Assembly (NCBI GenBank): GCA_002304505.1
Contig: NCEH01000002.1
Location: forward strand, 1-64,000
DNA: 64,000 nt
DNA from: Rhizobiales bacterium 32-66-11
Lineage (GTDB): Bacteria > Pseudomonadota > Alphaproteobacteria > Rhizobiales > Xanthobacteraceae
Direction: 5' to 3'
Shown: positions 4,240-4,395 of the stretch, in pieces
How the letters are laid out: each line of letters starts with the position of its first letter
Numbering within the stretch: the stretch's first letter is position 1
Made by a program: the position numbers and the translations under genes
The notes under the pieces: model-generated
The model's database searches: none
What the model saw: the letters and a program-made list of their open reading frames with translations, nothing else
What the model was told of the DNA's origin: nothing

Positions 4240-4395
4240 AGCTGCCCGTCCTGCTAGGATGGGACGCCGGCGGGCACTCCGATGCGTGGAGGGTCTCTCG
4301 ACCGTGGTCATCTCGGACCCGCCGGCGTTTCGGTCGCACACGCGTACGGGAGTTGGGGGCTTTCGCCCGAATGCAATCCGGCGTGCAGACCACCG
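4240..4395 (+). ncRNA. Candidate IS110 bridge RNA (seekRNA) with target- and donor-binding loops
   Basis: Three structures follow one another upstream of the transposase. (1) A 5' hairpin has arms CCCGTCCT (4245-4252) and AGGATGGG (4256-4263). (2) A stem-loop has a perfect 11-bp stem (4264-4274 with 4318-4328) and apical hairpin GGTC-TCTC-GACC (4292-4303). Its internal loop carries GCGTGGA (4284-4290), identical to the left flank 4222-4228, and GGTCATCTC (4306-4314), complementary to right-flank 5405-5413 with one G-U wobble. (3) A stem-loop (4339-4343 with 4381-4385) has apical GGGC-TTTC-GCCC (4357-4368). It carries ACGGGAG (4346-4352), identical to the right end 5401-5407, and ATGCAATCC (4371-4379), complementary to the left end 4226-4234. 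This is the order known for the IS621 bridge RNA. The transcript ends are not determined. Confidence 0.75.

What the first reader, a model, noticed from the sequence alone, without database searches (positions are those of the whole stretch)
4240..4395. Bridge RNA of an IS110 element readable with all four guides
The leader of the transposase gene has a 5' hairpin and two looped stems. The first loop carries GCGTGGA (4284-4290), equal to the left flank (4222-4228), and GGTCATCTC (4306-4314), complementary to the right flank (5405-5413, one G-U). The second carries ACGGGAG (4346-4352), equal to the right IS end (5401-5407), and ATGCAATCC (4371-4379), complementary to the left end (4226-4234). 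Left matches overlap in GGA and right matches in GAG, so all four guides share one core, GA. Order and polarity are those known for the IS621 bridge RNA (left guides same sense as the top strand, right guides complementary).
Basis: partly seen in the sequence, partly recalled or inferred. Interest (0 to 1): 0.92.

Follow-up and report, generated by a model that had tools for sequence, protein, structure and literature searches.

The report
IS110 bridge RNA targeting a REP

Summary
Window 4228-5409 is an IS110-group insertion sequence with an intact recombinase (4418-5392). The window and six relatives share this RNA (CM 137-176 bits). Target guides follow each element's own flanks (right target GGCC/ACCC/GCCC/TCCC with guides GGTC or GGCC/GGGT/GGGC/GGGA), and the left donor guide tracks the IS end. 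Nearly all sit at the same place in REP palindromes. Empty paired-REP loci in the same genome show the uninterrupted site.

The core is AT (4228-4229, 5408-5409), or GAT counting all shared bases, not GA.

Verdict: new member of a known kind (IS621-like bridge RNA). One unusual trait: G at position 7 of both target and donor lets the first handshake base pair before and after exchange, in all seven elements. Activity is inferred, not shown.

The parts
4228..5409 (+). IS110 element between and including the two AT core copies (1180 bp from core to core)
   Evidence: Empty paired-REP loci in own genome lack exactly this stretch apart from one core; 113/128 identity across the joined flanks
4145..4179 (-). 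First REP unit of the invaded REP pair (inverted)
   Evidence: Same unit in the empty loci L002, L003, L005
4221..4227 (+). Left target (LT) GGCGTGG, left edge of the second REP unit
   Evidence: Empty site GGCGTGGATGGCCGGG; GCGTGGATGGCCGGG occurs 3 times exactly in own genome
4228..4229 (+). Left copy of the AT core (third shared base G4227)
   Evidence: Empty-site comparison; T at core position 9 nearly invariant in IS110
4230..4234 (+). Right donor (RD) TGCAT, the start of the element
   Evidence: Identical in 6 of 7 elements, TGCGT in L007
4245..4263 (+). 5' stem-loop of the bridge RNA
   Evidence: 4 of 7 pairs show two-sided changes in relatives
4263..4329 (+). Target-binding loop: basal stem 4263-4274/4318-4329, apical hairpin GGTC-GACC 4292-4303
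   Evidence: Helices present in 7/7 elements, two compensatory pairs in the basal stem
4284..4290 (+). Left target guide (LTG) GCGTGG plus A of the core
   Evidence: Equals LT; LTG follows LT in relatives
4306..4311 (+). Right target guide (RTG) GGTC plus AT pairing the core
   Evidence: Pairs AT-GGCC at 5408-5413 (one G-U); 4/4 pairs with own RT in 6 of 7 elements, the exception being the G194 copy L016
4312..4314 (+). Handshake guide of the target loop, CTC
   Evidence: Pairs donor GAG 5405-5407; first two letters CT constant in all elements, donor positions 6-7 AG in all
4332..4391 (+). Donor-binding loop: stems 4332-4335/4388-4391 and 4339-4343/4381-4385, apical hairpin GGGC-GCCC 4357-4368
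   Evidence: All helices in 7/7 elements
4346..4352 (+). Left donor guide (LDG) ACGGGAG
   Evidence: Equals LD 5401-5407; variable fifth base tracks LD in 7/7
4371..4377 (+). Right donor guide (RDG) ATGCA plus AT pairing the core
   Evidence: Pairs AT-TGCAT 4228-4234
4378..4379 (+). Handshake guide of the donor loop, CC
   Evidence: Pairs target GG 4226-4227; CC and GG constant in all elements
4418..5392 (+). IS110 recombinase, 324 aa, with D10, E58, D100, D103 and S245
   Evidence: PF01548, PF02371, NF033542; IS621 and ISCro4 chains in PDB
5389..5394 (+). TTGACA, candidate -35 box of a promoter formed only at the circle junction
   Evidence: TTGA at the same 13-nt distance from the core in 8/8 right ends, TTGAC in 7/8
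5401..5407 (+). Left donor (LD) ACGGGAG, the right end of the element
   Evidence: Matches LDG; relatives ACGGAAG, ACGGTAG, ACAGGAG
5408..5409 (+). Right copy of the AT core (third shared base G5407)
   Evidence: Empty-site comparison
5410..5433 (+). Right target and rest of the second REP unit, GGCCGGGACAAGCCCGGCCATGAC
   Evidence: Contiguous with GGCGTGGAT in empty loci

Best explanation
The leader of the IS110 recombinase gene encodes a bridge RNA of the IS621 type. The recombinase, bound to this RNA, pairs the first loop with the REP sequence GGCGTGG-AT-GGCC and the second loop with the joined ends of the excised circle, ACGGGAG-AT-TGCAT. It then exchanges strands at the AT core, inserting the element into the second unit of a REP pair. 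Shown by sequence: element ends, empty site, guide matches, covariation with target and donor, conserved fold, conserved catalytic residues. Inferred from IS621: transcription of the RNA from a promoter formed at the circle junction (-35 in the right end), RNA binding by the protein, and the catalytic steps.
For: Recombinase of the right family with D10, E58, D100, D103, S245 aligned to IS621 D11, E60, D102, D105, S241. Empty paired-REP loci in the same genome give the ends without reference to the RNA. Seven elements, from this genome and six others, have the same RNA, 137-176 bits with a model built from six of them; L082 was not in the model and scores 136.6. Own guide-target identity is 66 of 77, permutation mean 53.1, reached by 4 of 5040; with five less related elements only the true pairing (1 of 120) reaches the observed value. 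LDG tracks the LD base at position 5 (G, A, T) in 7/7. Nine copies in G194 with equal recombinase scores and the same guide strings all insert after GTACTGG. TTGA at one spacing in 8/8 right ends. Order and polarity as published.
Against: No transcript or activity data. From the window copy alone the match is only about a 0.3% chance event. LTG fails at target position 1 and at the T of the core; G194 guides leave one or two RTG mismatches in most of its copies. The -10 box at the junction is poor (CATGTT). The permutation test is on few, partly related sequences. No published bridge-RNA covariance model was available to run.
Confidence: 0.95

Rival explanations
1. The leader is a conserved structured 5' UTR that regulates recombinase translation, and the similarity to flanks arises because all elements sit in similar REPs.
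For: The RNA lies directly upstream of the start codon and REP flanks are alike; small RNAs and mRNA 5'-UTR structure are reported to regulate ISPpu9 (abstract of PMC8450116).
Against: Guides change together with the flanks (RTG GGGT with ACCC, GGGA with TCCC, GGCC with GGCC; LTG GTACTGG with GTACTGG) and the donor guide changes with the IS end; loop positions and polarity equal IS621.
Confidence: 0.03
2. The recombinase protein alone recognises REP palindromes and the RNA matches are remnants or chance.
For: Protein-based REP targeting is proposed for other IS families (PMC1525189); a single copy has about a 0.3% chance of such matches.
Against: Seven-fold recurrence with covariation; left targets differ (GGCGTGG, GTCGTGG, CCGCTGG, GTACTGG) while recombinases stay related; one G194 copy (L075) sits at a site that keeps the left target and core but lacks the usual right REP sequence.
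Confidence: 0.02

Closest known systems
IS621 bridge RNA and recombinase (PMC11208160, PMC11208158)
   Same: RNA in the left end upstream of the gene; 5' stem-loop, target loop, donor loop; guide order and polarity; 7 bp left plus dinucleotide core; handshake bases; REP targets; DEDD plus S recombinase; -35 in the right end.
   Different: Core AT (sometimes GT on the left side) instead of CT; RDG pairs contiguously in the window, L015, L007 and L010 instead of with flipped-out bases; RTG reaches 4 nt past the core; position 7 is G in target and donor, so the first handshake base does not discriminate; recombinase similarity modest (E 3e-19).
IS110-type seekRNA, ISEc21 (PMC11187229)
   Same: Upstream noncoding RNA with complementarity to both target strands, order as reported for the IS110 type, natural re-targeting between relatives.
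   Different: Different element and target; RNA processing not examined here.
ISRm19 of Sinorhizobium meliloti and ISPpu9, ISPpu10, ISPa11 (PMC1525189)
   Same: IS110-family elements inserted specifically in REP sequences.
   Different: Not compared by sequence here; no guides described in that paper.

Membership tests
IS110 family, IS110 group | DEDD RuvC-like domain plus Transposase_20 domain with catalytic serine | tested here: met
   PF01548 54 bits, PF02371 72 bits, NF033542 above cut-off; residues D10 E58 D100 D103 S245
IS110 family, IS110 group | Long noncoding region upstream of the gene, short one downstream | tested here: met
   188 nt left (4230-4417), 15 nt right (5393-5407)
IS110 family, IS110 group | Scarless insertion at a short shared core in a specific target | tested here: met
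   Empty REP loci align through the joined flanks with the core once
[quoted passage not shown]
   Main helices in 7/7 elements, two-sided changes in helices 1 and 2
IS621-type bridge RNA | Target loop covaries with target | tested here: met
   66/77 vs permutation mean 53.1, 4/5040
IS621-type bridge RNA | Donor loop covaries with donor ends | tested here: met
   LDG position 5 tracks LD in 7/7; few variable positions
IS621-type bridge RNA | Handshake bases pair with the non-cognate DNA | tested here: met
   CT with donor AG, CC with target GG in all; but the first base also pairs the cognate DNA
IS621-type bridge RNA | Expressed RNA bound by the recombinase and needed for recombination | not testable with these tools
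   Needs RNA sequencing and in vitro recombination
Any RNA family in Rfam 15 | Match to a curated model at the gathering score | tested here: not met
   Only a tRNA elsewhere in the window

The most novel reading that the evidence does not exclude
This REP-targeting branch uses an effective three-base core, GAT: position 7 is G in both target and donor, so the first handshake base pairs before and after exchange and only position 6 tells the two states apart. In IS621 such cognate pairing of the handshake guide blocks recombination, so either this branch tolerates it or its direction control differs.
Probability: 0.3. Interest if true: 0.45.

Novelty: new member of a known kind. Interest (0 to 1): 0.3.

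Why it matters
It gives a complete, internally checkable example of a bridge-RNA element in alphaproteobacteria, with empty target sites in the same genome. Natural AT-core elements with guides that follow each host's REP family are candidate programmable recombinases, and the handshake pattern here conflicts with a rule drawn from IS621, which can be tested directly.

Tried and rejected
Viral contigs: no relatives. Plasmids: only relatives under 60% identity. Class-wide CM search: no further hits in 385 genomes. Distant IS110 relatives score 15-28 bits just upstream of their genes in several loci; not pursued, as their ends were not defined. The model-fitted alignment misplaces the apical hairpins in some rows, so pair counts for helices 3, 4 and 7 understate them; a direct pattern check finds the apical hairpins and main stems in 7/7. 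No structure prediction was run, because IS621 and ISCro4 already match over nearly the full length.

Full report
Observation. The window copy folds into a 5' hairpin and two looped stems. By itself it is suggestive, not conclusive: with ends fixed from the empty site, 16 of 5000 dinucleotide shuffles give four ordered matches of six or more.

The gene. The ORF from 4418 to 5392 is a full IS110 recombinase (Pfam PF01548 and PF02371; NCBIfam NF033542). It aligns over nearly its whole length with IS621 and ISCro4 in the PDB (E about 3e-19). D10, E58, D100, D103 and S245 fall on the IS621 catalytic residues D11, E60, D102, D105, S241. It is the only copy found in the genome.

The ends. The flanks belong to a REP pair. 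Three unoccupied paired REPs in the same genome (L002, L003, L005) align through the joined flanks, 113 of 128 identical for L002, when GAT is counted once. The intact site is GGCGTGG-AT-GGCCGGG; the 15-mer GCGTGGATGGCCGGG occurs three times exactly. So the core is AT at 4228-4229 and 5408-5409, with G4227/G5407 as a third shared base. AT is assigned as the dinucleotide because the IS110 core ends in a nearly invariant T at position 9 (PMC11208158).

Relatives. Close relatives (53-69% recombinase identity) are L007, L008, L009, L010, L015, nine copies in G194, and L082. L009 lacks its leader (contig end). A covariance model from six leaders finds all seven leaders at 137-176 bits, L082 not having been used in building it. 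The main stems and apical hairpins are present in all seven; the 5' stem and the target-loop basal stem carry two-sided changes.

Covariation. Right target and guide pairs: GGCC/GGTC (window, one G-U), ACCC/GGGT (L015), GCCC/GGGC (L007, L010), GGCC/GGCC (L008), TCCC/GGGA (L082). Left target and guide: GGCGTGG/TGCGTGG (window), GTCGTGG/GTCGTGG (L007), GTACTGG/GTACTGG (G194), CCGCTGG/GTGTTGG (L008). The true assignment scores 66 of 77 against a permutation mean of 53.1, reached by 4 of 5040; with five less related elements only the true assignment reaches its value, 1 of 120. The donor guide follows the IS end at its variable fifth base, G, A or T, in 7/7. Nine G194 copies share the ends and all follow GTACTGG, with more variable right targets. 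Nearly all elements sit in a recognisable REP; L075 is the irregular one.

Handshake guides. In the window, RTG is GGTC plus AT for the core. The next letters CTC pair with donor GAG 5405-5407, which is the element's own end. RDG is ATGCA plus AT; the next letters CC pair with target GG 4226-4227. In all seven elements the handshake letters are CT and CC, the donor has AG and the target GG at positions 6-7. The first handshake base C therefore pairs with G7 of both DNAs; only position 6 separates the states before and after exchange. In IS621, cognate pairing there inhibits exchange. This is the one point at which the element departs from the published rule.

Expression. TTGACA (5389-5394) lies 13 nt before the core in the right end; TTGA stands at this spacing in 8/8 right ends, TTGAC in 7/8. 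With a 17-nt spacer the -10 box in the circle would be CATGTT at 4232-4237, a weak match. The start would fall near 4244, just before the 5' stem-loop. This is inference by analogy with the junction promoter of IS621.

Relation to the known. Guided target choice by IS110 elements, left-end bridge RNAs, guide order, REP targeting and natural re-targeting are published (PMC11208160, PMC11208158, PMC11187229, PMC1525189). The element is a new member. No biochemical step was tested.

In passing. A perfect ParB-type site lies about 155 bp from the element and turned out to be one of 53 exact copies in the genome; see the list of things noticed.

Noticed in passing
window 5565-5580, and about 5561-5670: Perfect parS-like palindrome TGTTTCACGTGAAACA. 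Own genome has 53 exact copies on many contigs and the other held genome of the genus has 38, whereas 59 relatives have 0-5. Outside a 12-copy cluster next to an mnmG-like gene (L102), most sampled copies lie at one edge of a dispersed repeat of about 100 bp, so a repeat seems to have spread a ParB-type site through the chromosome of this genus.
   Followed up: partly
L008 2811-2812; L040 left junction: Left core is GT while the right core is AT, so the two core copies of one element can differ.
   Followed up: no
G194 copies, L082 and L007, between the recombinase gene and the right end: An extra stretch of roughly 100-200 nt with a large GC-rich inverted repeat (GGTCAAGGCCGGCATCGCC... in G194) is present in these right ends but not in the window element.
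   Followed up: no
window about 4757-4795: Short tandem duplication inside the recombinase gene (GCGCGAACTGTCCCG twice, [10 protein letters not shown]), not seen in L015 or L082.
   Followed up: no
L075 (G194): Copy inserted at GTACTGGAT/TTCCTGGCGGCG, without the usual right REP sequence though still matching the left guide; a natural off-site insertion.
   Followed up: no
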